Assembly (NCBI GenBank): GCA_947095585.1
Contig: OX352763.1
Coordinates: 49,618,481 to 49,682,480, forward strand
Source of the DNA: Nephrocerus scutellatus
Lineage: Eukaryota; Arthropoda; Insecta; Diptera; Pipunculidae
Reading direction: 5' to 3'
Length of the DNA: 64,000 bases
Part shown: one piece after another, positions 7,834 through 58,729 of the stretch
Position numbering within the stretch: the first letter of the stretch is position 1
Layout: each line of letters opens with the position of its first letter
The notes under the pieces: model-generated
Seen by the model: the letters and a program-made list of their open reading frames with translations, nothing else
What the model was told of the DNA's origin: nothing
Databases searched by the model: none
Program-made: the position numbers and the translations under genes

Positions 7834-8113
7834 AAATATAATAATATATATACATATATAATAATTTTTTTTTAAAATTATTTCCGTTGAATCTTGGGTT
7901 TTTGTATTGCCCCGATATTTTTCGCGAATATTGTTTTTGTGCTGTGAATATTGTTTTTTGTGTTTGGGCTAGTCAATTTATTTTTTCAAAATAAGTAGAC
8001 CAGTCACTAGGCAAATAAGTAGACAAGCAAAAGCTATTGCTGATACTAATTTGTCTTCAAATTTGAGTTTTTCGTCCGATTTGGAAGTTATTCCTGAAGA
8101 GGAGTCGTCCGAC

Positions 8114-8906
8114 ATGGACATTAAAATTAGTATTTCTGATGTTTATAACATCATACCCCTTTTCGATGGGAAGCCAGCCGATTTGGCTAAATTCACGTCA
8201 TGCGGTGATATTCTCTTCACCTCTGTAAAAGAGAGTGATGAACCCACATTTTTGGCCATCGTTAAGACAAGGCTACAGGGTCCCGCATTCGAGTTGACTC
8301 AGTTAAACTCACTTACGACTTGGGCAGCTCTCAAGGAGAAGCTCGAGTTAGAATACAAGGAGGTAAAAACGCATTCCTCTGCACACAATGAACTGTTGAC
8401 CACAAAGCAGAGATACAAAGAATCGGTCAAGGAATTTGGCGAAAGGGTTTGCACGGCCCTTAATAATCTAAACTCCGACACCTTCAACACAACCCGCGAC
8501 GAGACAGTTCGGGAATTCTTGGTGCAAGAAAACCGCCGTCTAGCGATCCAGGTGTTCGAAGACGGTCCGAAAAATGACAAAATCAGGCTTATAGCCAAGG
8601 ATTTCGGGGGAGCTGACCTAAAAGGGGTTATAGCTCATGCTGAGGGACATGCTGCACGCATAGATCACGCCTCACAAACTTTCCAAAATAAATTTGCTTC
8701 TCACAGAAATAACCCACAATATATTGTCAGACTTGCGGTAAGCCCGGTCACACGAGGGAAACATGTTACCGGAATAATCACTTTCAAAACTTTCAGGGTA
8801 GGCCTCCCATAAAAAAAGAAGTGCAATTTCTTATTTGCAATTACTGCAAGAAGAGGAACCACACCGAGTCAAACTGTAGGTTACGGTTATCCAACCACAG
8901 GCCGCC
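8114..8906 (+). pseudogene. Errantivirus gag (copy 1), frameshifted
   Basis: Encodes the capsid precursor. The best start is the ATG at 8114 (MDIKISISDVYNIIPLFDG), though the frame is open upstream to about 7960. Matrix/capsid-like sequence continues to FASHRN near 8706. A frameshift then separates two CCHC zinc knuckles: CQTCGKPGHTRETC from 8725 and CNYCKKRNHTESNC from about 8836. Two knuckles are normal for Ty3/gypsy nucleocapsid. Gag runs straight into a truncated protease, and the same deletion is in copy 2. Confidence 0.85.
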
Positions 8907-11656: not shown

Positions 11657-12749
11657 TGTAGTGATCGCACTACATGTCGCCTCATCAAACCAACTCTCCT
11701 AAATATGATTTTCTTTCCCACAACGTCAAATGCGACATAATACCAAAAGTACGCCTCATCATCAAACCAACTCTCCTAAATATGATCTTCTTTCCCACGA
11801 CGTCAAATGCGACACAATACCGAAAGTACGCCAAGTACGTTGCAGCGCTCACTTTTCATGTCGAACATAAATATTTCATGTTCATGAGCTCGTCACCCGA
11901 TATCCGCTTCAGCTATAACATTCAATAGCGTTCAATGCTGTGTTTATACAACACTGCAGCTATAATAAAATGCGATCGCTCTGCATTCAATGCTTTGTAT
12001 ATACAACACTGCAGATATAACGAATAGCAATACGCTTTCCCAATTGTTCCATACCGAATGCAATACTATACGGCGGCGGATACACACGAAGTCCAAAGTC
12101 AAGTACAATTATGAATTGTAGGTATACAGAACAAGGGTGAATGGACATCATCAACGGCATTAGCTGGGTGTATATCCAGAGCCATTGACGAATTTTATGC
12201 TGATGCATTAGTATTGTGTAATAATTTACCGACTTAACTGTTTAACCCAATATTATTGGGCAATAATTTAATTGCTTACGCAGTTAATAGTGCATCGCAC
12301 TATATCTGGAGCATTAATTATTTGATTTATCGATATTGGTAAATATTGTTGATGAGTGCATTTCCGTGAACTGCGTTTGGTTTGGGACAAAGATCGTTTG
12401 GATTTGAGCATATAAAAGGGGAGTAAAATCTAGTTGAAAAGTCAGAGTTAATTCGAAGTTTAACCCAGGAAGTAATTCTAGTAGAGGTCGCAGCCAAGCT
12501 TAAGACAGCGGGCCTCCCTAGGATTGTAAAATTATTAAATTATTAAAAACTTACCAAATTATCTAGTAGAGGTCGCAGCCAAGCTCAAAACAGCGGGCCT
12601 CTCTGGTAATATATAACCAAAATAAAATAAAATACCTAATTGTTTGTAAAATACAAAATAAACGTTTTATTTAAAACTAATTCTCCGCCCAAGTAACTCT
12701 TCCCTTAGTCAAATAAGGAAGCACGGTTACTACCTCCGGCATTAAAACA
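11657..12749 (+). repeat. Errantivirus LTR 2 (1093 bp)
   Basis: Near-identical to LTR1, with the same TG start, 77-bp U3 repeat, TATA box at 12411 and end ATTAAAACA. Small differences include loss of GAACTA near 12174 and an added CGCACTATAT near 12296. It ends one unit and starts the next, and is directly followed by leader and gag. Confidence 0.9.
12411..12417 (+). promoter_or_regulatory. LTR2 TATA box
   Basis: TATAAAAGGGGAG at the position equivalent to LTR1. It would drive the gag-pol-FHA-env unit that follows. Confidence 0.65.
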
Positions 12750-12907
12750 TTGGTGGCAGCGGTGGGATCTACAAAAGATCTCCTACCAAAGAAAAATAAG
12801 CCAAAACAGAAGACCGTTCTTCTGATGCGTGCTGGGGCTATACACCAGTAGAGTAAGAAAAGTGAAATAAGTGAAGTGAATTAGAAAGTCCCGAAAACAG
12901 TAAGACC
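12750..12907 (+). other. Primer-binding site and leader (copy 2)
   Basis: TTGGTGGCAGCGGTGGGATC directly follows the LTR, as in copy 1. Non-coding. Confidence 0.65.
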
Positions 12908-13189: not shown

Positions 13190-13578
13190 AAATATAATAA
13201 TATATATACATATATAATAATTTTTTTTTAAAATTATTTCCGTTGAATCTTGGGTTTTTCCTTTTACTGCAAACCTTTTTCTCTCTCTTAAATTATTCCG
13301 ATATTTCTTTTTTTTCGCGAATTTTTTTTACTCCGATATTTTTTCACGAATTTTGTTTTATTCTGATTGTATTGCCCCGATATTTTTCGCGAATATTGTT
13401 TTTGTGCTGTGAATATTGTTTTTTGTGTTTGGGCTAGTCAATTTATTTTTTCAAAATAAGTAGACCAGTCACTAGGCAAATTAGTAGACAAGCAAAAGCT
13501 ATTGCTGATACTAATTTGTCTTCAAATTTGATTTTTTCGTCCGATTTGGAAGTTATTCCTGAAGAGGAGTCGTCCGAC

Positions 13579-14375
13579 ATGGACATTAAAATTAGTATTT
13601 CTGATGTTTATAACATCATACCCCTTTTCGATGGGAAGCCAGCCGATTTGGCTAAATTCACGTCATGCGGTGATATTCTCTTCACCTCTGTAAAAGAGAG
13701 TGATGAACCCACATTTTTGGCCATCGTTAAGACAAGGCTACAGGGTCCCGCATTCGAGTTGACTCAGTTAAACTCACTTACGACTTGGGCAGCTCTCAAG
13801 GAGAAGCTCGAGTCAGAATACAAGGAGGTAAAAACGCATTCCTCTGCACACAATGAACTGTTGACCACAAAGCAGAGATACAAAGAATCGGTCAAGGAAT
13901 TTGGCGAAAGGGTTTGCACGGCCCTTAATAATCTAAACTCCGACACCTTCAACACACCCGCGACGAGACAGTTCGGGAATTCTTGGTGCAAGAAAACCGC
14001 CGTCTAGCGATCCAGGTGTTCGAAGACGGTCCGAAAAATGACAAAATCAGGCTTATAGCCAAGGATTTCGGGGGAGCTGACCTAAAAAGGGTTATAGCTC
14101 ATGCTGAGGGACATGCTGCACGCATAGATCACGCCTCACAAACTTTCCAAAATAAATTTGCTTCTCACAGAAATCCGTAACCCACAATATATTGTCAGAC
14201 TTGCGGTAAGCCCGGTCACACGAGGGAAACATGTTACCGGAATAATCACTTTCAAAACTTTCAGGGTAGGCCTCCCATAAAAAAAGAAGTGCAATTTCTT
14301 ACTTGCAATTACTGCAAGAAGAGGAACCACACCGAGTCAAACTGTAGGTTACGGTTATCCAACCACAGGCCGCCA
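13579..14375 (+). pseudogene. Errantivirus gag (copy 2), frameshifted
   Basis: Capsid precursor beginning at the ATG MDIKISISDVYN. A one-base loss near 13954 (NTPAT versus NTTRDE in copy 1) shifts the frame, and VQENRRLAIQVF resumes in another frame from 13983. A TAA follows near 14178. Two CCHC knuckles, CQTCGKPGHTRETC and CNYCKKRNHTESNC, lie at about 14195-14345. Zinc knuckles are joined directly to protease C-terminus as in copy 1, so that deletion preceded the duplication. Confidence 0.85.
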
Positions 14376-15100: not shown

Positions 15101-15930
15101 GAAAAACTAGTGGACATAAACCACTGTAATAAAGAAGAAAGATCTTCTATAATCCAGATATGTCGCGAGTTTAATGATTTGTTTTACTAACCTGGAGACA
15201 AGCTCACTTGTACTAATGCAGCCACACATCAGATAATCACTGAAGTAGGTAAACCTCCTATATATGTTAGACCATATAGACTGCCAGAAACAAGTAGAGC
15301 TGAAATTAACAAACAGGTAGGCGAAATGCTCGAAAATGATATTATCCGACCAAGTTACAGTCCTTGGAATTCACCTCTATTACTTGTTCCTAAAAAACCT
15401 GATGCTCAAGGTAACAAAAAATGGTGAGTAGTTGTATACTACAGGCGTCTAAACGATGCAACTGTTGGGGATGCATTTCCGCTTCCCAATATAACAGACA
15501 TTTTGGACCAACTAGGTAAATCTAAATATTTCAGCACGTTAGATCTTGCAAACGGCTTTCATCAAATTTTAGTTCAAGAAGAAGATCGTGAAAAGACAGC
15601 GTTCAGCACTCCCATTGGTCATTGGGAGTATAACCGAATGCCTATGGGTATGAAAAACGCTCCCGCCACTTTCCAAAGAACGATGAATAATGTTTTAATG
15701 GGTCTAATTGGAATAGAATGTTTTATTTTTGTTGATGACATTGTAGTTTATGGACCTACTTTGGACGAACATAACCGAAAATTGCGAAATGTTCTAACAA
15801 GGCTACGGTTCAACAAACTAAAACTGCAGCCAGACAAATGCCATTTTATTAAGCGAGATCTTATGTACCTGGGACATATTATCAATGATGAAGGAATCAA
15901 GCCAAACCCAGGCGGTAAAAACATATCCTA
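15101..15930 (+). pseudogene. Errantivirus reverse transcriptase (copy 2)
   Basis: Ty3/gypsy RT. Fingers and palm include KPPIYVRPYRLPE, PSYSPWNSPLLLVPKK, YRRLNDATVGDAFPLPNI, FSTLDLANGFHQI (first catalytic Asp), MPMGMKNAPATFQ and FIFVDDIVVYG (catalytic Asp pair). In-frame stops are TAA at about 15188 (after NDLFY) and TGA at about 15425 (KW-stop). The frame is lost after GIKPNPGG at about 15915, where it overlaps the RNase H-integrase frame. The longest open part is 15503-15931. Confidence 0.92.
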
Positions 15931-17570
15931 GGCCAAAGAAAGCCAAAGATATTAAGGAATTTTTGGGATTTGTAGGATATTACAGGAGATTTATTCCTCA
16001 GTTTGCCCTGATAGCTAAACCGCTAAATAACTTGTTGAAAAAGAACATAGATTTCAAATGGGACGCTTTATGTGAAGAAGCGTTTGTTATTTTAAAAGAA
16101 AAATTAATCACCTCACCGATATTGATTTACCCAGATTTCAAAGAAAAATTTCTTATCACTACCGATGCAAGTGATTTTGCAATAGGAGCCGTGTTATCCC
16201 AAGGCAAAATAGGCCAAGACAAGCCTATATATTACGTCAGCCGTACTTTAAATGTTGCTGAGACAAAATATACCACTACCGAAAAGGAATTATTAGCAAT
16301 AATATTTGCAGTCAAGCAGTTCCGTCCTTACGTTTATGGTAGAAAATTTACAATTCTCACGGATCACAGGCCGCTTCAATGGCTGTTAAACCTTAAAGAT
16401 CCTACATTAAGATTGGCGCGATGGCGTGTTTCATTAGAGGAATATGAATATGAAATCATATACAAGCCAGACAAATGTAATGCCAATGCCGATGCAATCA
16501 GTCGCATCCCTGGAGACACACAAGTTGAAACAAACAATGGTAAAGTTTTAGTCACTACTAGGAGCAAAGCTAAACAGCAAAACCTAGATGAAATAGTAGT
16601 AGTAGGAAGCGAAATTGAGCCTCTACCAACTGAATGTACTGTAATCAAAACTTGTAAGCCCATAACGCTAGCCGAAAACCATTCTCCAATACAGATCTTT
16701 TTTCTACCTCATGGAACACGACAAGAGGAAACTTTATTTAGGAATATTTCGGGATATACTCGCCCCGCTCCTAACGAGTTAAAAATATTTCCTAGCGCAA
16801 CAGGATCATCAACATACATTATCATCTCTTTGTCAGTACATCTTACAGAAAAGGCAACTGTAGAAAATCACATTTTACAGATCCGAAATTTTTGTCAAAA
16901 AGAACCTCAAGAACCATTTTTTGATTTTTTAAAAGCCACTATAACACAGGCATTTTCACACACAAAACTGGATATTTATCTGTATTCGGACAACCGAATC
17001 ACTCTCACCGATCCACAAGAGATCGAAATTTTTTTGCATGACTTTCATAATTCACCTTTCAGAGGTCACCAAGGAACCTCTAGAACAGTTAAACGTCTCC
17101 GAACAAGATATTATTGGCCTACTTTGGTCAAAGACACAAAGGAATTCATTCGAAAAAGCGAATCCTGCCAAAGAAACAAGCTAAGGCAAAATCCACGAAT
17201 TCCGATGAAAGTTACGACAACTAGCACAAGTCCATTTGAGCGTGTAGCTTTGGACATTGTCGGGCCACTTCCAACTAGCTATGAGGATAATAAATACATA
17301 TTTACATTTCAGGACGATTTGACAAAGTTCACTGAAGCTATGCCTCTTCCAAACGCTGAAGCTTCAACTGTGGCGCGTTGTTTCATAGAAAAAATAATAT
17401 GTCGTTTTGGACCACACGATGCGGTATTAACTGACCAAGGTACTAATTTCTTGAGTAACCTTTTTAAGGATGTTTGTAAGCTTTTGAAAATCAAAAAGAT
17501 ACTGACAACTCCATACCATCCGCAAACGAACGGAGCTTTAGACCGTTGTCACCGAACGCTAGCTGAATAG
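15885..17570 (+). pseudogene. Errantivirus RT thumb, RNase H and integrase (copy 2)
   Basis: One open frame of 561 codons. Residues 18-52 are RT connection (FLGFVGYYRRFIPQF). RNase H follows with D94 (TDASDFA), E135 (EKELLAI) and D160 (LTDHRPL). Integrase zinc domain: H388 and H395, then C428, but the other Cys is Ser425 (Cys in the copy at 57565). The core has D457 (ALDIVG) and D517 (TDQGTNF). The third acidic residue is D553 in TNGALDRCH, where D,D35E integrases have Glu. Spacing of 35 is right, so this is Glu to Asp. A TAG ends the frame after RTLAE. Integration activity is unlikely. Confidence 0.93.
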
Positions 17571-18038
17571 CTTATCTTAGGCACTATGTCAACAAAGACC
17601 AACTTTCATGGGACACTTGGTTACCATACGCAATGTTCGTATATAACACGACACCTCATAGCAGTACAAAATTTAGTCCTTTCCTTTTTTTAACTCATTT
17701 ATGGATTTCCTGCACGGATACCCAATTCCATAAACAGAAATCCTCAAGTTTCTTACAATTATGATAACTATGCTACCGAGCTAAAAGCCCGTTTACAACA
17801 TGGTTATCAGATAAAACAGAAGTCAAAAACCTACTATGACAGGGGATCGAAAGATAAAAAATTTAATGTAGGTGATAAAGTCTTTACAAAAAACCACACA
17901 AGAAAAAATAAGCTCTCTGCATTCTGGGAAGGTCCGCACGAGGAAACCAACATAATATCAGATGAGAACACAGAAGTTAAAGTGGGAAACCAGTTAAAAT
18001 TACTCCATATAAACAACTTAAAGATTTTGTCAGAATAG
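17571..18038 (+). pseudogene. Integrase C-terminus (copy 2)
   Basis: Continuation of integrase in broken frames: YVNKDQLSWDTWLPYAMFVYNTTPHSSTKF, then a shift, then YDNYATELKARLQ and a GPF-like module, LSAFWEGPHE, ending with TAG at 18036-18038. This is the C-terminal module of Ty3/gypsy integrases, so pol ends here and the next ORF is separate. The sequence CTGCACGGATACCCAATTCC (about 17710) is the point where the copy at 57565 rejoins after deletion. Confidence 0.75.
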
Positions 18039-18117
18039 TTCAAATTTTTTTTTTATCCCTTCTCATAAGATCCTAGAATAAAAACAATAGGTTTTTTCTT
18101 TTTACTTTCATGTCAGA

Positions 18118-18567
18118 ATGGAGTCAATAAACTATCTGCCCAACTCGTACTGGCTACTGTACAATATAGTGTCGAACCGCGAAATTCCTTTACGGAAGGG
18201 TTTCTCAAAGATCGGTAACGGCTATCCGAATCGAATATCCGTTCCCACTGAACTCGTTTCGATTACACACGCTATAATCGAAATAGATGCCTGTGAGGAA
18301 AATATTACGGTTAAGGATTGTGAGAGCTCCAGTGGTACTTACGTCAACGGAGTGCAACTTAGGCCTGGGGAAACCGCCACATTGAAAACCGGAGACATCC
18401 TTAGTCTGGGAATTCAAGTAGAGGACTTCAGCCTGAGTTTAAGCCCCGCATACGTCGTAAGACGACGACGAGCTTATCCTGGAATAGGAGTCCTACAGGA
18501 ATGGTTTTGGCATCTACCAAACACTCACGTAATACTTTTCTATGGATTCCAGCCTACGACAGTTTGA
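18118..18567 (+). CDS. FHA-domain protein between pol and env
   Basis: 149 residues from the ATG at 18118 (context AGAATGG), 79 bp after the integrase stop and 161 bp before env. Residues about 12-100 match the forkhead-associated fold, a phosphothreonine-binding beta sandwich. The pattern is KIGNG (31-35), VSITHA (47-52, with S48 and H51 of the SxxH motif), ITVKDCESSSGTYVNG (63-78) and LKTGDILSLG (89-98). The canonical Arg after KIG is Asn34, and the usual Asn of SSNGT is Ser72, so phosphopeptide binding may be altered. The C-terminal 45 residues, with RRRR at 115-118, are not recognised. FHA domains are host signalling and DNA-damage modules. I know of none in errantiviruses, so capture from a host gene is inferred. 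Two further damaged copies exist (35217, 58296). Confidence 0.82.
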   Translation: MESINYLPNSYWLLYNIVSNREIPLRKGFSKIGNGYPNRISVPTELVSITHAIIEIDACEENITVKDCESSSGTYVNGVQLRPGETATLKTGDILSLGIQVEDFSLSLSPAYVVRRRRAYPGIGVLQEWFWHLPNTHVILFYGFQPTTV

Positions 18568-18728
18568 CACGAGCCATAGCACAAATTTTAGAAAAAAAAT
18601 AATAATAATATATACATATATATATATATATATGTAAATGTATCTGAATAAGTTTTTTGAATAAAATTTAATCTTCAAACCACTGTTTCTTTCACTTCTC
18701 CTCTGCCATCTTACTCTTTGAAAAAAAA
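18568..18728 (+). other. Spacer between FHA ORF and env
   Basis: Non-coding. An AT microsatellite (ATATAT runs at about 18600-18632) is followed by a pyrimidine-rich stretch, TTTCTTTCACTTCTCCTCTG (about 18684-18703), shortly before the env ATG. It could act as the splice acceptor for the subgenomic env RNA that errantiviruses make, but no clear AG site is proven. Confidence 0.35.
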
Positions 18729-19587
18729 ATGGAAAGCGTAACAATTTGGTGTTTTATGTTCACCATTGCGCTGGGACACCAATACATTTCTGAAATATCC
18801 AAATTGTGCAACTGACTAAATAACGACACGCAAATATCACATTTGTGCAAAGGTACGGTGGTAGAGCTTAATCACGTAATCGAGGACATTCTACAAAAAT
18901 GCAGCCTCCTAAGCTTGGAAGTAAACTCGAAACCAAGGGCAAAGAGAGCACTATTAAATGCAGTAGGAATGATCAGCAAATCACTTTTCGGTACTTTGTC
19001 AGAAGATGATGTCAATTATTACGACAGGCAGATTAATAAGTTACAACACAACGAAGAGCATCTAAGGAATCTAATTAAAAATCAGACATATATCATGGGG
19101 ACGACCATCAACATCTTCAATAGAACGCAGCCAGTTAGAGACAGCCAAATTAAAACGCTGAACACAAAATTCTCCTCAATACTAAAAATTCTAGACGATT
19201 GCACTAATAGTGTCCAAAATGAGCGGCTAGTAAACGAATTAGAATCACTAATATCTTATTCAACTTTAGCCATATTGCATCAACAAAGCTTGCTAAATGA
19301 AGTCATCGTCTCTGTAACTGAGGTACGACACGGAAAACTTCACCCGGCCATCATAACTCCAGAGCAGTTGGAGACCGTCCTTTCATCTATGCTCAGAGAA
19401 ATTCCTAGCAATACCAAACTTCCAATCCCAATACTACACAAAGATATAATACCTCTTTATAAAATCAGTACAGTAACGTCTTAATCCAATCTAAAAGAAT
19501 AATATACGAAAATAAATTACCAATACCTTTCAAAGAAATCTACCAGCTTTATAAATTTTTACCCTTCCCCACTAAAATTCAAAATGA
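18729..19587 (+). pseudogene. Errantivirus env, N-terminal half
   Basis: Envelope fusion protein of the baculovirus F-like class, which would be surface-exposed. The ATG at 18729 gives MESVTIWCFMFTIALGHQY, a signal peptide. A TGA at 18813 interrupts it and the same frame resumes. A furin-type site RAKR is encoded at 18936-18947, followed by ALLNAVGMISKSLFG, resembling the fusion peptide region. A long helical heptad-like stretch follows to about 19300. The frame stops at 19482-19484 and continues one frame over to KIQND, where satellite DNA begins at 19588. The C-terminal half is found after the satellite and mariner (27025-29182). Confidence 0.85.
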
Positions 19588-22500
19588 TTTGGCTTGGTTC
19601 CAAAAATTCCAGACCCTATTGGCCAGATCCCAGAATTTCCATAGGAATAAATCTTATAGTCGCACATTAGTCCTACATTCCGAGTATAGAATAGTTAGAT
19701 AATAGAATTTCATTAGGAACAAATCTTATAGTCGCACATTAGTCCTACATTCCGAGTTTCATACGAATTCCTTGAGAAATGGCTTGGTTCCAAAAAATCA
19801 AGACCCTATGGCCAGATCCCAGATGTTCCATAGGAAACAATCTTATAGTCGCTATTCGCATATTAGTCCTACATTCCGAGTTTCATACTAACCCTTGAGA
19901 AATGGATTGATTCCAAAAATTCCAGACCCTATGGTCAGATCACAGAATTTCCATAGGCACAAATCTTATAGTCGCATATTTGTCCTACATACTGAGTTTC
20001 ATACGAATCCCTTGAGAAAAGGCTTGGTTCCCAAAATTCCAGACCCTTTTAGCCAGATCCCAGAATTTCCATAGGAACAAATGTTATAGTCGCATATTAG
20101 TCTTACATTCTGAGTTTCATACGAATCCGTTGAGAAATGGCTTGGTTCCAAAAATTCCAGACCCTATTGGCCAGATCCCAGAATTTCCATAGGAACAAAT
20201 CTTATAGTCGCATATTAGTCTTACATTCTGAGTTTCATACGAATTCCTTGAGAAATGGCTTGGTTCCCAAAATTCCAGACCCTTTTAGCCAGATCCCAGA
20301 ATTTCCATAGGAACAAATGTTATAGTCGCATATTAGTCCTACATTCCGAGTTTCATACGAATTCCTTGAGAAATGGCTTGGTTCCCAAAATTCCAGACCC
20401 TTATAGCCTGATCCCAGAATTTCCATAGGAACAAATGTTATAGTCGCATATTAGTCCTACATTCCGAGTTTCATACGAATTCCTTGAGAAATGGCTTGGT
20501 TCTCAAAATTCCAGACCCTTTTAGCCAGGTCCAAGAATTTCCATAGGAACAAATGTTATAGTCGCATATTAGTCCTACATTCCGAGTTTCATACGAATCC
20601 CTTGAGAAATGGCTTGGTTCCCAAAGTTCCAGTCCCTTTTAGCCAGATCCCAGAATTTCCATAGGAACAAATGTTATGGTCGCATATTAGTCTTACATTC
20701 TGAGTTTCATACGAATCCCTTGAGAAATGGCTTGGTTCCAAAAATTCCAGACCCAGATCCCAGAATTTCCATAGGAACAAATCTTATAGTCGCATATTAG
20801 TCCTACATTCCGAATTTCATACGAAACCCTTGAGAAATGGCTTGGTTCCCAAAATTCCAGACCCTCTTGGCTAGATCCCAGAATTTCAATAGGAACAAAT
20901 CTTATAGTCGCATATTATTTCTACATTCCGAGTTTCATACGAATCCCTTGAGAAATGGCTTGGTTCCCAAAATTCCAGACCCTATTGGCCAGATCCTAGA
21001 ATTTCCATAGGAACAAATGTTATAGTCGCATATTAGTCCTACATTCTGAGTTTCATACGAATCCCTTGACAAATGTCTTGGTTCCCAAAATTCCAGACCC
21101 TATTGGCCAGATCCTAGAATTTCCATAGGAACAAATCTTATAGTCGCATATTAGTCCTACATTCCGAGTTTCGTACGAATCCCTTGAGAAATGGCTTGGT
21201 TTCCAAAATTCCAGACCCTATTGGCTAGATCCCAGAACTTCCATAGGAACAAATCTTATAGTCGCATATTAGTCCTACATTCCGAGTTTCATACGAATCC
21301 CTTGAGAAATGGCTTGGTTCCCAAAATTCCAGACCCTATTGGCCAGGTCCCAGAATTTCCATAGGCACAAATGTTATAGTCGCATATTAGTCCTACATTC
21401 TGAGTTTCATACGAATCTTTTGAGAAATGGCTTGTTTCCAAAAATTCCAGACCCAGATCCCAGAATTTCCATAGGAACAAATCTTATAGTCGTATATTAG
21501 TCCTTCATTCCGAGTTTCATACGAAACCCTTGAGAAATGGCTTGGTTCCCAAAATTCCAGACCCTATTGGCTAGATCCCAGAATTTCAATAGGAACAAAT
21601 CTTATAGTCGTATATTAGTTCTACATTCCGAGTTTCATACGAATCCCTTGAGAAATGGCTTGGTTCCCAAAATTCCAGACCCTATTGGCCATATCCCAGA
21701 ATTTCCATAGGAACAAATCTTATAGTCGCATATTAGTTCTACATTCTGAGTTTCATACGAATCCCTTAACAAATTGCTTGGTTCCAAAAATTCCAGAGCC
21801 TAATGGCCAGATCCCAGATTTTCCATAGGAACAAATCTTATAGTCGCATATTAGTCCTTGGTTTGATTTGGCTTGGTTCCAAAAATTCCAGACCCTTTTG
21901 GCCAGATGTCAGAATTTCCTTAGGAAGAAATCTTATAGTCGCATATTAGTCCTACATTCCGAGTTTCATACGAATCCCTTGAGAAATGGCTTGGTTCCCA
22001 AAATTCCAGACCCTATTGGCCAGATGCCAGAATTTCCATAGGAACAAATCTTATAGTCGCATATTAGTCCTACATTCCGAGTTTCATACGAATTCCTTGA
22101 GAAATGGCTTGGTTCCCAAAATTCCAGACCCTTTTAGCCAGATCCCAGAATTTCCATAGGAACATATGTTATAGTCGCATATTAGTCATACATTCCGAGT
22201 TTCATACGAATCCCTTGAGAAATGGCTTGGTTCCCAAAATTCCAGACCCTTTTAGCCAGATCCCAGAATTTTCATAGGAACAAATGTTATAGTCGCATAT
22301 TAGTCTTACATTCTGAGTTTCATACGAATCCTTGAGAAATGGCTTGGTTCCAAAAATTCCAGACCCAGATCCCAGAATTTCCATAGGAACAAATCTTATA
22401 GTCGCATATTAGTCCTACATTCCGAGTTTCATACGAAACCCTTGAGAAATGGCTTGGTTCCCAAAATTCCAGACCCTATTGGCTAGATCCCAGAATTTCA

Positions 22501-25500
22501 ATAGGAACAAATCTTATGGTCGCATATTATTTCTACATTCCGAGTTTCATACGAATCCCTTGAGAAATGGCTTGGTTCCCAAAATTCCAGACCCTATTGG
22601 CCAGATCCCAGAATTTCCATAGGAACAAATCTTATAATCGCATATTAGTCCTACATTCTGAGTTTCATACGAATCCCTTGACAAATGTCTTGGTTCCCAA
22701 AATTCCAGACCCTATTGGCCAGATCCTAGAATTTCCATAGGAACAAATTTTATAGTCGCATATTAGTCCTACATTCCGAGTTTCGTACGAATCCCTTGAG
22801 AAATGGCTTGGTTTCCAAAATTCCAGACCCTATTGGCTAGATCCCAGAATTTCCATAGAAACAAATCTTATAGTCGCATATTAGTCCTACATTCCGAGTT
22901 TCATACGAATCCCTTGAGAAATGGCTTGGTTCCCAAAATTCCAGACCCTATTGGCCAGATCCCAGAATTTCCATAGACACAAATGTTATAGTCGCATATT
23001 AGTCCTACATTCTGAGTTTCATACGAATCTTTTGAGAAATGGCTTGTTTCCAAAAATTCCAGACCCAGATCCCAGAATTTCCATAGGAACAAATCTTATA
23101 GTCGCATATTAGTCCTACATTCCGAGTTTCATACGAAACCCTTGAGAAATGGCTTGGTTCCCAAAATTCCAGACCCTATTGGGTAGATCCCAGAATTTCC
23201 ATAGGAACAAATCTTATAGTCGCATATTAGTTCTACATTCCGAGTTTCATACGAATCCCTTGAGAAATGGCTTGGTTCCCAAAATTCCAGACCCTATTGG
23301 CCATATCCCAGAATTTCCATAGGAACAAATCTTATAGTCGCATATTAGTTCTAAATTCTGAGTTTCATACGAATCCCTTAACAAATTGCTTGGTTCCAAA
23401 AATTCCAGAGCCTAATGGCCAGATCCCAGATTTTCCATAGGAACAAATCTTATAGTCGCATATTAGTCCTTGGTTTGGTTTGGCTTGGTTCCAAAAATTC
23501 CAGACCCTTTTGGCCAGATGTCAGAATTTCCCTAGGAAGAAATCTTATAGTCGCATATTAGTCCTACATTCCGAGTTTCATACGAATCCCTTGAGAAATG
23601 GCTTGGTTCCCAAAATTCCAGACCCTATTGGCCAGATGCCAGAATTTCCATAGGAATAAATCTTATAGTCGCACATTAGTCCTACATTTCGAGTTTCATA
23701 CGAATACCTTGAGAAATGGCTTGGTTCCAAAAATTCCAGACCCTTTTGGCCAGATCCCAGAGTTTCCATAGGAACAAATCTTATAGTCGCATATTAGTCC
23801 TACATTCCGAGTTTCATACGAATCCCTTAAGAAATGGCTTGGTTCCAAAAATTCCAGACCCTTTTGGCCAGATGTCAGAATTTTCCTAGGAAGAAATCTT
23901 ATAGTCGCATATTAGTCCTACATTCCGATTTCATACGAATCCCTTGAGAAATGGCTTGGTTCCAAAAATTCCAGACCCTATTGGCCAGATCCCAGAATTT
24001 CCACAGGAATAAATCTTATAGTCGCACATTAGTCCTACATTCCGAGTATAGAATAGATAGATAACAGAATTTCCATAGGAACAAATCTTATAGTCGCACA
24101 TTGGTCCTACATTCCGAGTTTCATACGAATTCCTTGAGAAATGGCTTGGTTCCAAAAAATCAAGACCCTATGGCCAGATCCCAGATGTTCCATAGGAAAC
24201 AATCTTATAGTCGCTATTCGCATATTAGTCCTACATTCCGAGTTTCATACTAACCCTTGAGAAATGGATTGATTCCAAAAATTCCAGACCCTATGGCCAG
24301 ATCACAGAATTTCCATAGGAACAAATCTTATAGTCGCATATTAGTCCTACATACTGAGTTTCATACGAATCCATTGAGAAATGGCTTGGCTCCAAAAATT
24401 CCAGACCCTATTGGCCAGATCCCAGAATTTCCATAGGAACAAATCTTATAGTCGCATATTCGTCCTACATTACGAGTTTCATACGAATCCCTTGAGAAAT
24501 GGCTTGGTTCCCAAAATTCCAGACCCTATTGGCCAGATCCCAGAATTTCAATAGGAACAAATCTTATAGTCGCATATTAGTCCTACATACCGAGTTTCAT
24601 ACGAATCCCTTGAGAAATGTCTTGGTTCCCAAAATTCCAGACCCTCGTACGAATCCCTTGAGAAATGGCTTGGTTTCCAAAATTCCAGACCCTATTGGCT
24701 AGATCCCAGAATTTCCATAGGAACAAATCTTATAGTCGCATATTAATCCTACATTCCGAGTTTCATACGAATCCCTTGAGAAATGGCTTGGTTCCCAAAA
24801 TTCCACACCCTATTGGCCAGATGCCAGAATTTCCATAGGAATAAATCTTATAGTCGCACATTAGTCCTACATTCCGAGTTTCATACGAATACCTTGAGAA
24901 ATGGCTTGGTTCCAAAAATTCCAGACCCTTTTGGCCAGATCCCAGAACTTCCATAGGAACAAATCTTATAGTCGCATATTAGTCCTACATTCCGAGTTTC
25001 ATACGAATCACTTGAGAAATGGCTTGGTTCCCAAAATTCCAGACCCTATTAGCCAGATCCCAGAATTTCCATAGGAACAAATGTTATAGTCGCATATTAG
25101 TCTTACATTCTGAGTTTCATACGAATCCCTTGAGAAATGGCTTGGTTCAAAAATTCCAGATCCCAGAATTTCCATAGGAACAAATGTTATAGTCGCATAT
25201 TAGTCCTACATTCCGAGTTTCATACGAATCACTTGAGAAATGTCTTGGTTCCCAAAATTCCAGACCCTATTAGCCAGATCCCAGAATTTCCATAGGAACA
25301 AATGTTATAGTCGCATATTAGTCTTACATTCTGAGTTTCATACGAATCCCTTGAGAAATGGCTTGGTTCCCAAAATTCCAGACCCTCGTACGAATCCCTT
25401 GAGAAATGGCTTGGTTTCCAAAATTCCAGACCCTATTGGCTAGATCCCAGAATTTCCATAGGAACAAATCTTATAGTCGCATATTAGTCCTACATTCCGA

Positions 25501-27024
25501 GTTTCATACGAATCACTTGAGAAATGGCTTGGTTCCCAAAATTCCAGACCCTATTAGCCAGATCCCAGAATTTCCATAGGAACAAATGTTATAGTCGCAT
25601 ATTAGTCCTACATTCCGAGTTTCATACGAATACCTTGAGAAATGGCTTGGTTCCAAAAATTCCAGACCCTTTTGGCCAGATCCCAGAACTTCCGTAGGAA
25701 CAAATCTTATAGTCGCATATTAGTCCTACATTCCGAGTTTCATACGAATCACTTGAGAAATGGCTTGGTTCCAAAAATTCCAGACCCTTTTGGCCAGATC
25801 CCAGAACTTCCATAGGAACAAATCTTATAGTCGCATATTAGTCCTACATTCCGAGTTTCATACGAATCACTTGAGAAATGGCTTGGTTCCCAAAATTCCA
25901 GACCCTATTAGCCAGATCCCAGAATTTCAATAGGAACAAATCTTATAGTCGCATATTAGTTCTACATTCCGAGTTTCATACGAATCCCTTGAGAAATGGC
26001 TTGGTTCCCAAAATTCCAGACCCTATTGGCCAGATCCCAGAATTTCCATAGGAACAAATGTTATAGTCGCATATTAGTCCTACATTCTGAGTTTCATACG
26101 AATCCCTTGAGAAATGTCTTGGTTCCAAAAATTCCAGACCCTATTGGCCAGATCCTAGAATTTCCATAGGAACAAATCTTATAGTCGCATATTAGTCCTA
26201 CGTTCCGAGTTTCGTACGAATCCCTTGAGAAATGGCTGGGTTTCCAAAATTCCAGACCCTATTGGCTAGATCCCAGAATTTCCATAGGAACAAATCTTAT
26301 AGTCGCATATTAGTCTTACATTCTGAGTTTCATACGAATCCCTTGAGAAATGGCTTGGTTCCAAAAATTCCAGACCCAGATCCCAGAATTTCCATAGGAA
26401 CAAATCTTATAGTCGCATATTAGTCTTACATTCTGAGTTTCATACGAATCCCTTGAGAAATGGCTTGGTTCCAAAAATTCCAGACCCAGATCCCAGAATT
26501 TCCATAGGAACAAATCTTATAGTCGCATATTAGTCCTACATTCCGAGTTTCATACGAAACCCTTGAGAAATGGCTTGGTTCCCAAAATTCCAGACCCTAT
26601 TGGCTAGATCCCAGAATTTCAATAGGAACAAATCTTATAGTCGCATATTAGTTCTACATTCCGAGTTTCATACGAATCCCTTGAGAAATGGCTTGGTTCC
26701 CAAAATTCCAGACCCTATTGGCCAGATCCCAGAATTTCCATAGGAACAAATGTTATAGTCGCATATTAGTCCTACATTCTGAGTTTCATACGAATCCCTT
26801 GAGAAATGTCTTGGTTCCAAAAATTCCAGACCCTATTGGCCAGATCCTAGAATTTCCATAGGAACAAATCTTATAGTCGCATATTAGTCCTACATTCCGA
26901 GTTTCGTACGAATCCCTTGAGAAATGGCTTGGTTTCCAAAATTCCAGACCTTATTGGCTAGATCCCAGAATTACCATAGGAACAAATCTTATAGTCGCAT
27001 ATTAGTCCTACGATTCCTCCTATG
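19588..27024. repeat. Satellite array B inside env, 118-bp monomer with higher-order structure
   Basis: About 7.4 kb of the same 118-bp satellite as array A. Rare variants mark higher-order repeats: AGTCCTTGGTTTG occurs at about 21856 and 23468 (1612 bp apart), with neighbours matching in order. GAGTATAGAATAG occurs at about 19683 and 24045. The array splits env: the 11-bp string ATTCAAAATGA ends the left flank (19577-19587) and begins the right flank (27025-27035). The last segment, CCTACGATTCCTCCTATG, is not satellite. No gene is seen. Confidence 0.95.
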
Positions 27025-27097: not shown

Positions 27098-28371
27098 AAG
27101 GGTCCGCCAAATAACTTTTTTTTTTGAAAATGCTATAAAAAAAAACTACTGAATATTTTGTCAAATTTTTTTTATTTGAAAGTACAATCCTTGCGGTTAA
27201 CAATGGAAAATAATTTCATTCAAATGGCTGCCTCGGCTGGCCATGCAGTAGCCTACACGATCGGTCCAATTTTTAAGCACATTATCGATTGTGTGCAGCT
27301 GTATTTCACCAATGGCTTCACGAATATTGTCCTTTAAAGCGTCAATTGTCTCTGGCTTGTCGGCGTAACACTTATCTTTTAGGGCACCCCACAAATAATA
27401 GTCCAACGGTGTCAAATCGCAGCTCCGAGGTGGCCAAACGACATCAGCTCTGCGGCTGATAATGCTATCTTCAAAAATAGGGCGCAAAACATCGAGTGTA
27501 GCTTCGGATGTGTGGCACGTAGCGCCGTCCTGTTGAAACCAAATGTTGCCAATATCCTCCTCTTCAATTTTTGTCAATTTCAAATTTCGTTCAACATGGC
27601 CCGATAACGATCGCCATTGACTGTAACGGCCACTCCTTGCTCATTTTCGAAGAAAAATGGCCCAATTATGCCTCTGGACCAAAATCCGCACCAAACAGTG
27701 ACTCGTTTTGGGTGTACCGGCTTTTCAATGTATGCGTGCGGGTTTTCTGTGCCCCAAATGCGACAATTTTGCTCGTTTACATACCCGCCAAGATCAAAAT
27801 GAGCTTCATCCGAAAAGATGATTTTTTTGGCAAAATCTGTAAGTCGATCGCAGGCCCACTCAGCGAAGCGAAAACGCATTGGATGGTCGGTCGGCTTCAA
27901 CTCCTGAACCAATTGGACTTTGTATGGCGTCATACCAAGGTCTTTATGCAAAATTCGTCTCAATGATGTCTCCGAAATGTTCAATTGTTGAGAACGACGG
28001 TGAATTGATGTTGATGGCGCTTCACGCACACTTTCTGCCGCAGCATCAATATTCTCGGGTGTACGCACTGGTTTTGGCTTTTCACGCTTTGGTTTATCGA
28101 TGAGGATGCCAGTTTCTTTCACTTTTTTCACAAGATAACGAACATACGGAGCTGACGGTGCTTCTCTTCTTCCAAAATCCGTACGCAATTTTCGCACACA
28201 TTCTGCAACATTACCATGATTTTCAAAGTAATGTCGCAATATTTCCCAGCGTTGTTCAAGCGTATACACAACCATATTCGTTCAGCGGAAGGATACAACT
28301 AATTATCTGTCAAATCAGACATGAGCTAAGTGTTACCAACTTTAGTTTATAACTTTAGATGGCGGACCCTT
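27098..28371 (-). mobile_element. DD41D mariner element, copy 3 (both ends present)
   Basis: Inverted repeats AAGGGTCCGCCA (27098) and TGGCGGACCCTT (to 28371), flanked by TA (27096-27097 and 28372-28373). Same env site and orientation as copy 1. The right end differs: CACGAAATAAGCACTAG is replaced by a shorter ACTTTAGTTTATAAC stretch near 28339. Confidence 0.94.
27197..28275 (-). pseudogene. Mariner transposase, frameshifted (copy 3)
   Basis: Same protein as 3867-4943, but near 27575-27590 the sequence for LNEFLFTKIE is changed by small indels. The frame breaks between the N-terminal 231 residues (27580-28275) and the C-terminal part (27197-27583). All three catalytic Asp are encoded, split over the two frames, and the LWG motif is intact. 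Not functional as read. Confidence 0.9.
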
Positions 28372-29182
28372 TATGATCTCACAATCGAAGAAATCAACCA
28401 ATGCACTGCACAAACTGACTCCCTGTTATGTCCGATTACTCATTCTCTTTATGACTTTAATTCTAATCAAGATAATTGTGAAATACAATTATTACGAAGA
28501 GACGCGCATCCTTCGGCTTGCCAAGTGAAGCAATCACCTTTATCTGTAGTTTGGATACAGCTCTCTCAACCTGGCAAATGGTTATTGTCCGCTAAAAACA
28601 AGTATATCATGGACGAGATTTGTGACCAGAAGCTAACAACGCATAAATTTTTGGGAGCAGGAATCGTAGAATTCACAGGCAAATGATATTTACGTAGTAA
28701 AGATCTGACAATATATGGTCAAAATTTAGACAGCACTCTTTTAAGGAATTCTTTCATTCCGATGATAAATTTAACTCTTTTGAAATCTAAAACTAGCACA
28801 ACTTCTACAAACGTAACCCCTATTAAATTGCTTAAGTACAATGAAAACAATAATCTGGCAGAACTTTCTTACCAAGTAGATTTCTTAAAGAAAGAGGAAG
28901 GAAAAGGTTTGCAAAATTTAGATTAGCATGATGCTCATCATTATACAGTAATATATAGTTTGGCTTTAGTGACGTGCATAAACCTGTTGTATATTTATAA
29001 ATACCATTTTAAATTGAAAACCATTGTAACAGAATTAAGACAGCACCAACAGAGAATGAAAACAAACCAAAATCCAATGAAGAAGTTATCGATGGAGTTT
29101 CTGTTGATCAATTAATTGTACTAGAACTAGATAATAACAACGCTAGCCCAAACCCAAGCCCAAGATTCACATTGTCATCATA

Positions 29183-29629: not shown

Positions 29630-30643
29630 TGTAGTGATCGCACTACATGTCGCCTCATCAAACCAACTCTCCTAAATATGATTTTCTTTCCCACGACGTC
29701 AAATGCGACACAATACCAAAAGTACGCCTCATCATCAAACCAACTCTCCTAAATATGATCTTCTTTCCCACGACGTCAAATGCGACACAATACCGAAAGT
29801 ACGCCAAGTACGTTGCAGCGCTCACTTTTCATGTCGAACATAAATATTTCATGTTCATGAGCTCGTCACCCGATATCCGCTTCAGGTATAACATTCAATA
29901 GCGTTTAAAGCTGTGTATAAACAACACTGCAGCTATAATAAAATGCGATCGCTCTGCATTCAATGCTGTGTATATACAACACTGCAGCTATAACGAATAG
30001 CAATACGCTTTCCCAGTTGTTCCATACCGAATACAATACTATACGGCGGAGGATACACACGAAGTCCAAAGTCAAGTACAATTATGAATTGTAGGTATAC
30101 AGAACAAGGGTGAATGGACATCGTCAACGGGATTAGCTGGGTGTATGAACTATATCCAGAGCCATTGACAATTTTATGCTGATGCATTAGTATTGTGTAA
30201 TAATTTACCGACTTAACTGTTTAACCCAATATTATTGGGCAATAATTTAATTGCTTACGCAGTTAATAGTGCATCGCACTATATCTGGAGCATTAATTAT
30301 TTGATTTATCGATATTGGTAAATATTGTTGATGAGTGCATTTCCGTGAACTGCGTTTGGTTTGGGACAAAGATCGTTTGGATTTGAGCATATAAAAGGGG
30401 AGTAAAATTTAGTTGAAAAGTCAGAGTTAATTCGAAGTTTAACCCAGGAAGTAATTCTAGTAGAGGTCGCAGCAAAGCTTAAGACAGCGGGCCTCTCTGG
30501 TAATATATAACCAAAATAAAATAAAATACCTAATTATTTGTAAAATACAAAATAAACGTTTTATTTAAAATTAACTCTCCGCCCAAGTAACTCTTCCCTT
30601 AGTCAAATAAGGAAGCACGGTTACTACCTCCGGCGTTAAAACA
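29630..30643 (+). repeat. Errantivirus LTR 3 (1014 bp)
   Basis: Same start as LTR1; ends GGCGTTAAAACA. It has only one of the two AGGTCGCAGCCAAGC blocks: the text runs from the first block into the end of the second, a loss of about 85 bp between direct repeats. TATA at 30390. It closes the full unit. The following bases (ATGGGAACAAAAA) are not the leader found after LTR1 and LTR2 but the X sequence. Confidence 0.9.
30390..30396 (+). promoter_or_regulatory. LTR3 TATA box
   Basis: TATAAAAGGGGAG, in the same place as in LTR1. Confidence 0.6.
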
Positions 30644-33535: not shown

Positions 33536-35216
33536 ATCCGGAAAACGATCCGGTATACAAACGGATAGAAAAGCTGGAAAAACTAGTGGACATAAACCAC
33601 TGTAATAAAGAAGAAAGATCTTCTATAATCCAGATATGTCGCGAGTTTAATGATTTGTTTTACTAAAATGGAGACAAGCTTACTTGTACTAATGCAGCCA
33701 CACATCAGATAATCACTGAAGTAGGTAAACCTCCTATATATGTTAGACCATATAGGCTGCCAGAAACAAGTAGAGCTGAAATTAACAAACAGGTAGACGA
33801 AATGCTCGAAAATGATATTATCTGACCAAGTTACAGTCCTTGGAATTCACCTCTATTACTTGTTCCTAAAAAACCTGATGCTCAAGGTAACAAAAAATGG
33901 CGAGTAGTTGTAGACTACAGGCGTCTAAACGATGCAACTGTTGGGGATGCATTTCCGCTTTCCAATATAACAGACATTTTGGACCAACTAGGTAAATCCA
34001 AATATTTCAGCACGTTAGATCATGCAAACGGCTTTCATCAAATTTTAGTTCAAGAAGAAGATCGGGAAAAGACAGCGTTCAGCACTCCCACTGGTCATTG
34101 GGAGTATAACCGAATGCCTATGGGTATGAAAAACGCTCCCGCCACTTTCCAAAGAACGATGAATAATGTTTTAATGGGTCTAATTGGAATAGAATGTTTT
34201 ATTTTTGTTGATGACATTGTAGTTTATGGACCTACTTTGGACGAACATAACCGAAAATTGCGAAATGTTCTAACAAGGCTACGGTTCAACAAACTAAAAC
34301 TGCAGCCAGACAAATGCCATTTTATTAAGTGAGATCTTATGTACCTGGGACATATTATAAATGATGAAGGAATCAAGCCAAACCCAGGCGGTAAAAACAT
34401 ATCCTAGGCCAAAGAAAGCCAAAGATATTAAGGCATTTTTGGGATTTGTAGGATATTACAGGAGATTTATTCCTCAGTTTGCCCTGATAGCTAAACCGCT
34501 AAATAACTTGTTGAAAAAGAGCATAGATTTCAAATGGGAAGCTTTATGTGAAGAAGCGTTTGTTATTTTAAAAGAAAAATTAATCACCTCACCGATATTG
34601 ATTTACCCAGATTTCAAAGAAAAATTTCTTATCACTACCGATGCAAGTGATTTTGCAATAGGAGCCGTGTTATCCCAAGGCAAAATAGGCCAAGACAAGC
34701 CTATATATTACGTCAGCCGTACTTTAAATGTTGCTGAGACAAAATATACCACTACCGAAAAGGAATTATTAGCAATAATATTTGCAGTCAAGCAGTTCCG
34801 TCCTTACGTTTACGGTAGAAAATTTACAATTCTCACGGATCACAGGCCGCTTCAATGGCTGTTAAACCTTAAAGATCCTACTTCAAGATTGGCGCGATGG
34901 CGTATTTCATTAGAGGAATATGAATATGAAATCATATACAAGCCAGACAAATGTAATGCCAATGCCGATGCACTTAGTCGCATCCCTGGAGACACACAAG
35001 TTGAAACAAACAATGGTAAAGTTTTAGTCACTACTAGGAGCAAAGCTAAACAGCAAAACCTAGATGAAATAGTAGTAGTAGGAAGCGAGGAAATTGAGCC
35101 TCTACCAACTGAATGTACTGTAATGAAAACTGGTAAGCCCATAACGCTAGCCGAAAACAATTCTCCAATACAGATCTTTTTTCTACCCCATGGAACACGA
35201 CAAGAGGAAATATATA
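33536..35216 (+). pseudogene. Errantivirus pol, RT to RNase H (copy 3)
   Basis: RT and RNase H as in copy 2. Stops: TAA after NDLFY (33666, shared with copy 2), TGA at IIS-equivalent DII-stop-PSYS (about 33823), and TGA after CHFIK (about 34329). Catalytic motifs FSTLDHANGF (Leu to His next to the Asp), FVDDIVVYG, TDASDFA and LTDHRPL are visible. The frame from 34361 stays open and crosses the joint into FHA sequence at 35217. Integrase is deleted. Confidence 0.9.
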
Positions 35217-35596
35217 GGCCTGGGGAAACCGCCACATTGAAAACCGGAGACATCCTTAGTCTGGGAATTCAAGTGGTGGACTTCAGCCTGAGTTTAAGCC
35301 CCGCATACGTCGTAAGACTACGACGAGCTTATCCTGGAATAGGAGTCCTACAGGAATGGTTTCGGCATCTACCAAACACTCACGTAATACTTTTCCATGG
35401 ATTCCAGCCTACGACAGTGTATGAACTATATCCAGAGCCATTGACGAACAGTCAGCATCGAGCGCTCAACACGAGCACATCTTATACAGATCCCGCACCA
35501 GATCGCTCAGCTACCTGCTACCGGCTACGGAAAAAAAACCCTCACACCAAAAAGCGAGCATTTCGCTACCTGCGTTATTATAACATATTTTACTAA
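34361..35596 (+). pseudogene. RNase H-FHA fusion frame made by deletion
   Basis: 411 codons. About 285 are RT connection, RNase H and tether, ending HGTRQEEI. The next codons, RPGETATLKTGDILSLGIQ, are the second half of the FHA domain. After PTTV the frame runs into 29 bp of LTR and the 5' end of the LINE. The joint lies where pol TTTAGG and FHA CTTAGG share TAGG, so end joining at microhomology is likely. The FHA half lacks SxxH, so it could not fold as a full domain. Confidence 0.75.
35419..35447 (+). repeat. LTR fragment before the LINE (unit 1)
   Basis: GTATGAACTATATCCAGAGC onward equals LTR1 from 6817, joined directly to the end of the FHA ORF; env is missing. It ends CCATTGACGA, the LINE target site. 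Confidence 0.75.
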
Positions 35597-58295: not shown

Positions 58296-58729
58296 TTAGA
58301 GTCAATAGACTATCTGCCGAACTCGTACTGGTTACTGTACAATATAGTGTCGAACCGCGAAATTCCTTTACGGAAGGGTTTCTCAAAGATCGGTAACGGC
58401 TATCCGAATCGAACTGAACTCGTTTCGATTACACACGCTATAATCGAAATAGATGCCTGTGAGGAAAATATTACGGTTAAGGATTGTGAGAGCTTCAGTG
58501 GTACTTACGTCAACGGAGTGCAACTTAGGCCTGGGGAAACCGCCACATTGAAAACCGGAGACATCCTTAGTCTGGGAATTCAAGTGGTGGACTTCAGCCT
58601 GAGTTTAAGCCCCGCATACGTCGTAAGACTACGACGAGCTTATCCTGGAATAGGAGTCCTACAGGAATGGTTTCGGCATCTACCAAACACTCACGTAATA
58701 CTTTTCCATGGATTCCAGCCTACGACAGT
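58296..58729 (+). pseudogene. FHA-domain ORF without start codon (copy 3)
   Basis: Equivalent to 18118-18567, but the start codon is TTA (58296). The first codons read ESIDYLPNSYWLLYNIVSN as in the intact copy. Four residues (ISVP) after YPNR are deleted. SxxHA and GTYVNG are kept, with SFSG for SSSG, and LKTGDILSLG is kept. After PTTV the frame runs into the LTR fragment and LINE, so the original stop is lost. Apart from the start, the domain is open, showing that decay is recent or that some constraint lasted. Confidence 0.8.

What the first reader, a model, noticed from the sequence alone, without database searches (positions are those of the whole stretch)
18118..18567. FHA-domain ORF between integrase and env of an errantivirus
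The 149-residue ORF has KIGNG, VSITHA, SSSGTYVNG and LKTGDILSLG in the right order and spacing for a forkhead-associated domain. It lies after the pol stop and before env, and recurs in two other pol copies (35217, 58296). Errantiviruses normally have gag, pol and env only. A phosphothreonine-reading module could act in nuclear import, chromatin targeting or interference with the DNA-damage response. Host capture, possibly from an MDC1/Mu2- or NBS1-like gene with an N-terminal FHA, is inference. The binding Arg is Asn34, so ligand choice may differ.
Basis: partly seen in the sequence, partly recalled or inferred. Interest (0 to 1): 0.88.

Follow-up and report, generated by a model that had tools for sequence, protein, structure and literature searches.

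The report
FHA gene in an endogenous retrovirus
An endogenous retrovirus family of the gypsy type carries, between its polymerase and envelope genes, an extra gene for an FHA domain (a kind of phosphate-reading protein module); the gene recurs in many dispersed copies and its protein sequence has been kept by selection, so it looks like a working accessory gene of the virus.

Summary
The ORF at 18118-18567 is a real FHA domain (Pfam E 6.9e-13) in the pol-env gap of an errantivirus. The two further window copies are weak support: all three share one 3' flank, so they are duplicates of a single insertion, and the other two are damaged. The genome-wide search settles it: 121 matches on six contigs; 56 span at least 130 residues, 44 of those 56 without a stop. 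In 20 of 30 loci pol lies upstream and env downstream. Between subfamilies dN/dS is 0.06-0.45 in 16 pairs, close to neighbouring pol and env. A splice-acceptor CAG before the ATG is kept in 29 of 30 loci. A second family at 43% identity carries the gene in the same slot. So this is a maintained accessory gene, though some related copies lack it. The canonical FHA arginine is asparagine in 25 of 26 copies and in the second family, so ordinary phosphothreonine reading is doubtful. The best-scoring host FHA is SLMAP-type, weakly. Function (adaptor or decoy in host phospho-signalling) is inferred; the species is not identified.

The parts
11657..12749 (+). 5' LTR of copy A (TGTAGTGATC...AAAACA)
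12751..12768 (+). primer binding site TGGTGGCAGCGGTGGGAT (fits a tRNA-Leu 3' end; tRNA identity recalled)
13438..14180 (+). gag, broken (frame change)
   Evidence: the same gag in unit 1 (7973-8812) matches Retrotrans_gag at E 6e-4, below the curated cut-off
15191..18038 (+). pol (RNase H and integrase matched by Pfam in the piece 15885-17570), several lesions; stop at 18036-18038
18092..18116 (+). polypyrimidine tract and CAG: predicted splice acceptor directly before the FHA ATG; its AG ranks 8 of 3932 AGs of the window by a crude score
18118..18567 (+). accessory FHA ORF, 149 aa, ATG with A at -3 and G at +4
18211..18411 (+). FHA domain proper (residues 32-98)
18729..19484 (+). env N-terminal part, F type (Baculo_F positions 108-288), one in-frame stop at 18813
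19585..27017 (.). 118-bp satellite array that separates the two parts of env
28330..28686 (+). env C-terminal part (Baculo_F positions 356-458)
29630..30643 (+). 3' LTR of copy A, followed at 30644 by the flank shared with copies B and C
35215..35418 (+). copy B: 204 nt from the C-terminal part of the FHA ORF joined to pol by a deletion
58296..58729 (+). copy C: FHA ORF without ATG and with a 12-nt in-frame deletion, joined directly to LTR U3 (env deleted)

Best explanation
The ORF is a resident accessory gene of an errantivirus (gag-pol-FHA-env, F-type envelope). SHOWN: it lies in the same pol-env slot in many dispersed copies; it has been under purifying selection about as strong as that on pol and env; a second, diverged family has it too; a splice-acceptor CAG directly before its ATG is kept. 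INFERRED: it was taken from a host gene with an FHA domain before the two families split; it is translated from a spliced subgenomic mRNA as env is; the protein acts on its own as a small adaptor or decoy in host phospho-signalling. Because the phosphothreonine-binding Arg is Asn in both families, it most likely binds by a changed or phosphate-independent surface, as a mimic of an SLMAP/STRIPAK-type FHA, rather than as a standard phosphothreonine reader. A conserved arginine cluster after the domain could direct it to the nucleus.
For: FHA profile. Genome: 121 matches on C1-C6; 44 of 56 long matches without a stop. Pol upstream and env downstream in 20 of 30 loci; 7 more with env only, 3 with pol only. 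Seen from pol: 23 of the 30 best pol-end matches have an FHA match behind them, 17 of these 23 with env behind that. CAG before the ATG in 29 of 30. dN/dS below 1 at p < 0.05 in 16 of 16 between-subfamily pairs, 0.06-0.45, e.g. L015-L017 0.06 (p 2e-10), L001-L017 0.16; polC 0.09-0.18 and env 0.12-0.15 in three matched pairs. Family 2: FHA 43% identical between pol and env; F1-F2 74-83 bits against at most 29 bits to any of 13 host FHA exons. Independent insertions: four copies with the same LTR end and unrelated 3' flanks. N34 25 of 26, S48 26 of 26, H51 25 of 26, T74 and N77 26 of 26; R116 22 of the 23 copies that reach it.
Against: No transcript, protein or binding data. AlphaFold without an alignment gave pLDDT 41 and 44, and the one model searched had no fold match at E 0.001 or better. 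No relative in about 5.8 billion proteins by two word- and length-limited searches; viral contigs gave none either, but they gave no pol relative, so that says little. Spread beyond this genome is unshown. 7 of the 30 best pol-end matches have no FHA and run straight into the env C-terminal end, looking like deletions; 20 of 20 further pol relatives show no FHA, and eight of these (L065-L072, 70-73% at the pol end) are closer to family 1 there than family 2 is (56% and less to the window copy); L079 has an env frame directly after pol. The pol tree does not make the two FHA families sisters (support 56). One gain with losses, two gains or an exchange remain open. Family 2 lacks a pyrimidine-rich tract before its CAG. 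No strong acceptor was seen at the env start of copy A, so how env is expressed beside the FHA ORF is unclear. The link to SLMAP rests on weak scores. Pairwise tests share branches and are not independent.
Confidence: 0.62

Rival explanations
1. A host gene fragment or retrocopy landed in one dead provirus after integration and was multiplied only by segmental duplication of this repeat-rich cluster.
For: All three window copies share one integration flank; within the window cluster dN/dS is 0.62 and not different from 1 (p 0.45); the FHA ORF is GC-richer (0.456) than pol (0.38) and its AT-rich flanks; an A-run follows the ORF.
Against: 121 matches on six contigs, in the same slot, at independent insertion sites, under purifying selection; a second family has it too.
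Confidence: 0.02
2. A canonical phosphothreonine reader that interferes with the DNA-damage response or directs integration.
For: Ser48 and His51 of the FHA core are conserved; arginine cluster; the human ERV-K integrase carries predicted FHA-binding motifs (PMC8303831, passages seen); yeast Ty1 mobility is affected by S-phase checkpoint (Rad53) pathway mutations (PMC3002893, passages).
Against: The canonical Arg is Asn in 25 of 26 family-1 copies and in family 2, while 9 of 12 host FHA exons that show the position have Gly-Arg (read by eye); the Asn of SxNG is Ser in 24 of 26. The nibrin-like host exon scores low.
Confidence: 0.15
3. An intra-viral factor: the FHA protein binds Gag, integrase or viral RNA (through its arginine cluster) and works in assembly or RNA export, without a host partner.
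For: Similar constraint to pol and env; position between pol and env, where complex retroviruses keep regulatory genes (established knowledge); arginine cluster conserved.
Against: A related element with a 601-codon env-side frame directly after pol lacks it (L079), so it is not needed for the basic cycle.
Confidence: 0.18
4. The FHA is not a separate protein but an extension of Pol or Env made by frameshift or splicing.
For: It sits between the two genes.
Against: Different frame from the pol end, stop codon between, own ATG directly after a conserved acceptor, and its own stop before env.
Confidence: 0.03

Closest known systems
Errantiviruses / insect endogenous retroviruses (Metaviridae) with F-type env
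   Same: LTR, PBS, PPT, gag, pol, Baculo_F env; named pol hits among the 120 listed are insects such as ants, termites and Lepidoptera
   Different: A further ORF with an FHA domain; [quoted passage not shown]
mdg1-group sORF1/sORF2 accessory ORFs of insect LTR retrotransposons
   Same: Short accessory ORF kept by selection in an insect Ty3/gypsy element; sORF2 lies downstream of pol in 7 of 22 Lepidoptera consensus sequences (PMC11952523, passages)
   Different: sORF2 is a transmembrane fusogen-like protein in elements that lack env; this is an FHA domain in an element with env
Captured extra ORFs in LTR retrotransposons (bdelloid ORF3 types; review of giant transposons)
   Same: Captured ORFs between pol and env are known in general (PMC6431247, passages); bdelloid elements carry DEDDy or GDSL ORFs (PMC5408684, passages)
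   Different: The term FHA does not occur in either main text
SLMAP / Far10 FHA domain (STRIPAK)
   Same: Best-scoring host FHA for both families and best PDB match by sequence for family 1
   Different: Viral protein is only 142-149 aa, without the rest of SLMAP, and has Asn in place of the binding Arg; for family 2 the best PDB match is a bacterial FHA, with Far10 second

Membership tests
FHA domain (PF00498) | Profile score over the curated cut-off | tested here: met
   49.3 bits against 20.7; dispersed copies and family 2 also over the cut-off
FHA domain (PF00498) | Core motif Gly-Arg ... SxxH ... SxNGT ... NG | tested here: inconclusive
   SxxH, GT and NG present; Arg is Asn, and Asn of SxNG is Ser in family 1 (Asn kept in family 2)
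FHA domain (PF00498) | FHA beta-sandwich fold | tested here: inconclusive
   Models of pLDDT 41 and 44; many FHA chains among the top 50 PDB rows but none at E 0.001
FHA domain (PF00498) | Phosphothreonine binding | not testable with these tools
   needs protein
Errantivirus | LTRs with PPT and PBS, Ty3/gypsy pol | tested here: met
Errantivirus | F-type env downstream of pol | tested here: met
   Baculo_F E 4e-9 and 7e-7 on the two parts
Errantivirus | Only gag, pol and env (the described plan, not a formal exclusion) | tested here: not met
   a further ORF kept under selection
SLMAP | FHA followed by coiled coils and a tail anchor (recalled) | tested here: not met
   the ORF ends about 50 residues after the domain
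NBS1/nibrin origin | Best similarity of the viral FHA to that host gene | tested here: not met
   nibrin-like exon 11.4, 10.4 and 0.5 bits against 24.0, 20.4 and 29.2 for the best SLMAP-like exon
MDC1/Mu2 origin | Best similarity of the viral FHA to that host gene | not tested
   no such exon was identified among the 13 read
sORF2/FAST-like fusogen | Transmembrane segment and N-myristoylation motif | not tested
   no predictor run; the protein starts MESI, not MG

The most novel reading that the evidence does not exclude
An insect endogenous retrovirus lineage took an SLMAP-type FHA domain from its host, replaced the phosphothreonine-gripping arginine and keeps the changed domain as a stand-alone decoy or adaptor that diverts STRIPAK/Hippo-type or checkpoint phospho-signalling in the ovary to favour its spread: an accessory gene class of its own in errantiviruses.
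Probability: 0.2. Interest if true: 0.9.

Novelty: new variant of a known kind. Interest (0 to 1): 0.74.

Why it matters
Insect endogenous retroviruses are usually described as having only gag, pol and env. A host-like signalling domain kept under selection in an amplified family would show that they, like complex vertebrate retroviruses, can carry dedicated tools against or for the host cell. It gives a concrete protein with which to ask what an errantivirus needs from its host, and a natural experiment on an FHA domain that has survived without its key arginine.

Tried and rejected
Rejected: post-integration host fragment (dispersed copies, selection); fusion to pol or env (frame and stops); origin from NBS1 (scores). 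An argument from LTR age (A 5' against 3' LTR 0.020, A-C 0.023-0.026 in pol and FHA) was set aside as confounded by tandem LTRs.

Led nowhere: protein database (no match), viral contigs (no relative, of pol neither), two structure predictions and two fold searches, 10 paper searches. None of the rows listed in these 10 is a paper on an FHA gene in a retroelement; they cover open-licence PMC papers only, and searches listed 20 of 115 and 4 of 5. Species not identified. 13 of the 114 PF00498 places were read as host exons; many of the others are the viral copies.

Rows dropped before counts: of 30 loci, 4 (L007, L011-L013) were left out of the residue and dN/dS tables because their frame stops before 100 codons, and L005 was cut at 145 codons where it runs into the LTR. 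dN/dS used 21 chosen pairs over codons 2-118: 16 between subfamilies (0.06-0.45), 2 within the window array (0.44, 0.84, not different from 1) and 3 young pairs (0.11-0.33, not significant). The pol tree used only rows with more than 150 columns, so L031, L079, L067 and L074 were left out. The lists are lower bounds by the tool's own statement; the counts 56 and 44 were read off the table by eye, and several of its 121 rows are pieces of one copy.

Full report
What is there. The ORF at 18118-18567 encodes 149 residues with an FHA domain at residues 32-98 (Pfam E 6.9e-13; best PDB match by sequence the FHA of yeast Vps64/Far10, E 1.9e-7). Upstream are the RNase H and integrase domains and the C-terminal part of pol, ending in a stop at 18036-18038; downstream is the N-terminal part of an F-type envelope gene (Baculo_F), with an ATG at 18729 and one in-frame stop. 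The other part of env lies at 28330-28686, beyond a 118-bp satellite array and a DUF4817 transposon. LTRs of about 1.1 kb begin TGTAGTGATC and end AAAACA, with a polypurine tract before them; a binding site that fits tRNA-Leu follows two of them.

The window copies are one insertion. The 3' LTRs of copies A, B and C are followed by the same sequence (A-B 97.9%, A-C 96.1%, B-C 97.7%). Copies B and C also share the loss of env and a non-LTR insertion in the LTR. Pol, FHA and the LTRs diverge by 1-2.6%. The recurrence inside the window therefore says nothing about independent copies, and the window dN/dS (3 synonymous, 6 non-synonymous changes, ratio 0.62, p 0.45) is what dead duplicates give.

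The genome decides. The own genome (613 Mb, 9 contigs) answered after many unanswered requests. It holds 121 matches to the FHA protein on contigs C1-C6 (150 of 157 candidates scored). 56 of them span at least 130 residues and 44 of these 56 have no stop; 11 rows have the same score and E-value, a sign of recent spread. In the 30 loci read, pol lies upstream and env downstream in the right order in 20; 7 have env only and 3 pol only within the 1.5-kb flanks. Five of the 30 belong to the window's own array near C3:49.5-49.7 Mb; outside it 16 of 25 show both neighbours. Four copies end in the same LTR, followed by unrelated flanks (one a 180-bp satellite), so these are independent insertions.

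Seen from the other side, of the 30 best matches to the pol end, 23 have an FHA match behind it (one of them a 21-residue remnant): 17 of the 23 have the env N-terminus next, 6 only the env C-terminal end. The other 7 have no FHA and pass from pol straight to the env C-terminal end, as if one deletion had taken FHA and most of env. The gene is thus found both with and without env, and is lost in some copies.

Selection. Of 21 chosen pairs over codons 2-118, the 16 between subfamilies give dN/dS 0.06-0.45, each below 1 at p < 0.05: for example L015-L017 0.06 (22 synonymous and 5 non-synonymous changes, p 2e-10), L016-L017 0.09, L001-L017 0.16, L001-L015 0.33, and weakest L001-L008 0.45 (p 0.044). 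The two pairs within the window array give 0.84 and 0.44, not different from 1; three young pairs give 0.11-0.33, not significant. The pairs share branches, so the p-values are not independent. The neighbouring pol end and env give 0.09-0.18 and 0.12-0.15 in three matched pairs, where the FHA gives 0.06-0.33. In the young pair L017-L022 the numbers are small, and pol and env ratios are higher (0.52, 0.77) than the FHA's (0.11). The FHA gene was maintained during replication about as strictly as pol and env.

Expression. A polypyrimidine tract and CAG stand directly before the ATG; by a crude score this AG ranks 8 of 3932 in the window. The CAG is kept in 29 of 30 loci; family 2 has CACAG directly before AATGG, but without a pyrimidine-rich tract. 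The ATG has A at -3 and G at +4. A spliced mRNA, as for env, is the natural reading but no RNA was seen. At the env start of copy A no equally good acceptor was found, which is unexplained.

Second family. A hit of 43% identity at C3:80395613 (L031) is an open frame of 153 codons between pol and the start of env of another errantivirus family; L032 is a damaged member of the same family. Its FHA scores 74-83 bits with family 1 but at most 29 bits with any of 13 host FHA exons, so the two viral FHA genes are each other's closest relatives among those compared. The pol parts of the window copy and family 2 are 43-56% identical, similar to the FHA, which fits common descent. But the pol tree does not resolve whether the families are sisters (support 56), and none of 20 further pol relatives (L065-L084; pol end 51-73%) shows an FHA within about 2.3 kb or appears in the PF00498 list. 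Eight of these 20 (70-73%) are closer to family 1 at the pol end than family 2 is. An env N-terminal match was seen in only 2 of the 20 (L067, L079), so in the others the whole stretch may have been deleted or diverged; L079 has a 601-codon env-side frame directly after pol and no FHA. One gain with later losses, two gains or an exchange are all possible.

The binding pocket. In alignments with CHFR and EmbR the canonical Gly-Arg is Gly-Asn34; against Far10 and EmbR the Asn of SxNG is Ser72. Among 26 copies N34 is kept in 25, S48 in 26, H51 in 25, S72 in 24, T74 and N77 in 26. Family 2 also has GNGYPN, but keeps SNGT. 9 of 12 host exons that show the position have Gly-Arg (read by eye). Loss of the Arg under selection argues for a changed ligand, not decay.

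Donor. The best host exon is SLMAP-like with each of three viral queries (24.0, 20.4, 29.2 bits); a Chk2-like exon (label recalled) is close behind in family 1 (21.6, 18.4) and lower in family 2 (13.8); the nibrin-like one gives 11.4, 10.4 and 0.5. The labels SLMAP and nibrin rest on PDB matches (2e-35 and 3e-6). The scores are too weak to name a donor. No relative was found among 5.8 billion proteins by two word- and length-limited searches.

Known or new. Extra ORFs in LTR retroelements are known, also between pol and env (PMC6431247, passages), and insect elements carry accessory ORFs such as sORF2 (PMC11952523, passages). An FHA gene in an errantivirus did not appear in the listings of ten paper searches (named in Tried and rejected). 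I file it as a new variant of a known kind.

Noticed in passing
G000 C6:12.80-14.55 Mb: 14 FHA matches in about 1.8 Mb, 7 of the 14 with open frames of 479-509 aa; the one checked (L086) is SLMAP-like. It may be an amplified SLMAP-type gene family on one contig.
   Followed up: partly
window 58740-61580: A jockey-like non-LTR element inserted in the LTR of copy C, with a near-perfect target-site duplication CCATTGAC(a/g)AA and a poly(A) end; shared with copy B.
   Followed up: partly
window 1-3687 and 19585-27017: 118-bp satellite arrays; the second lies inside the env gene of copy A, with a DUF4817 transposon beside it.
   Followed up: partly
window 46756-51544: A second, different Ty3/gypsy element with long gag- and pol-like frames.
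   Followed up: no
P0069, P0085, P0087: Retroelement Pol proteins from public data carry a precomputed Macro domain (PF01661), another possible captured host module.
   Followed up: no
L038-L041, L045, L050, L058: Copies in which pol is followed at once by the env C-terminal end: FHA and most of env are missing together. L055 and L063 keep a full FHA match but lack the env N-terminus.
   Followed up: partly
window 18639-18770: No strong splice acceptor seen before the env ATG of copy A, although the FHA ORF upstream has one; how env is expressed is unclear.
   Followed up: no
L107, L109, G000 C1:42199700-42203900: A 180-bp satellite array starts directly after the 3' LTR end of one dispersed copy.
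   Followed up: no
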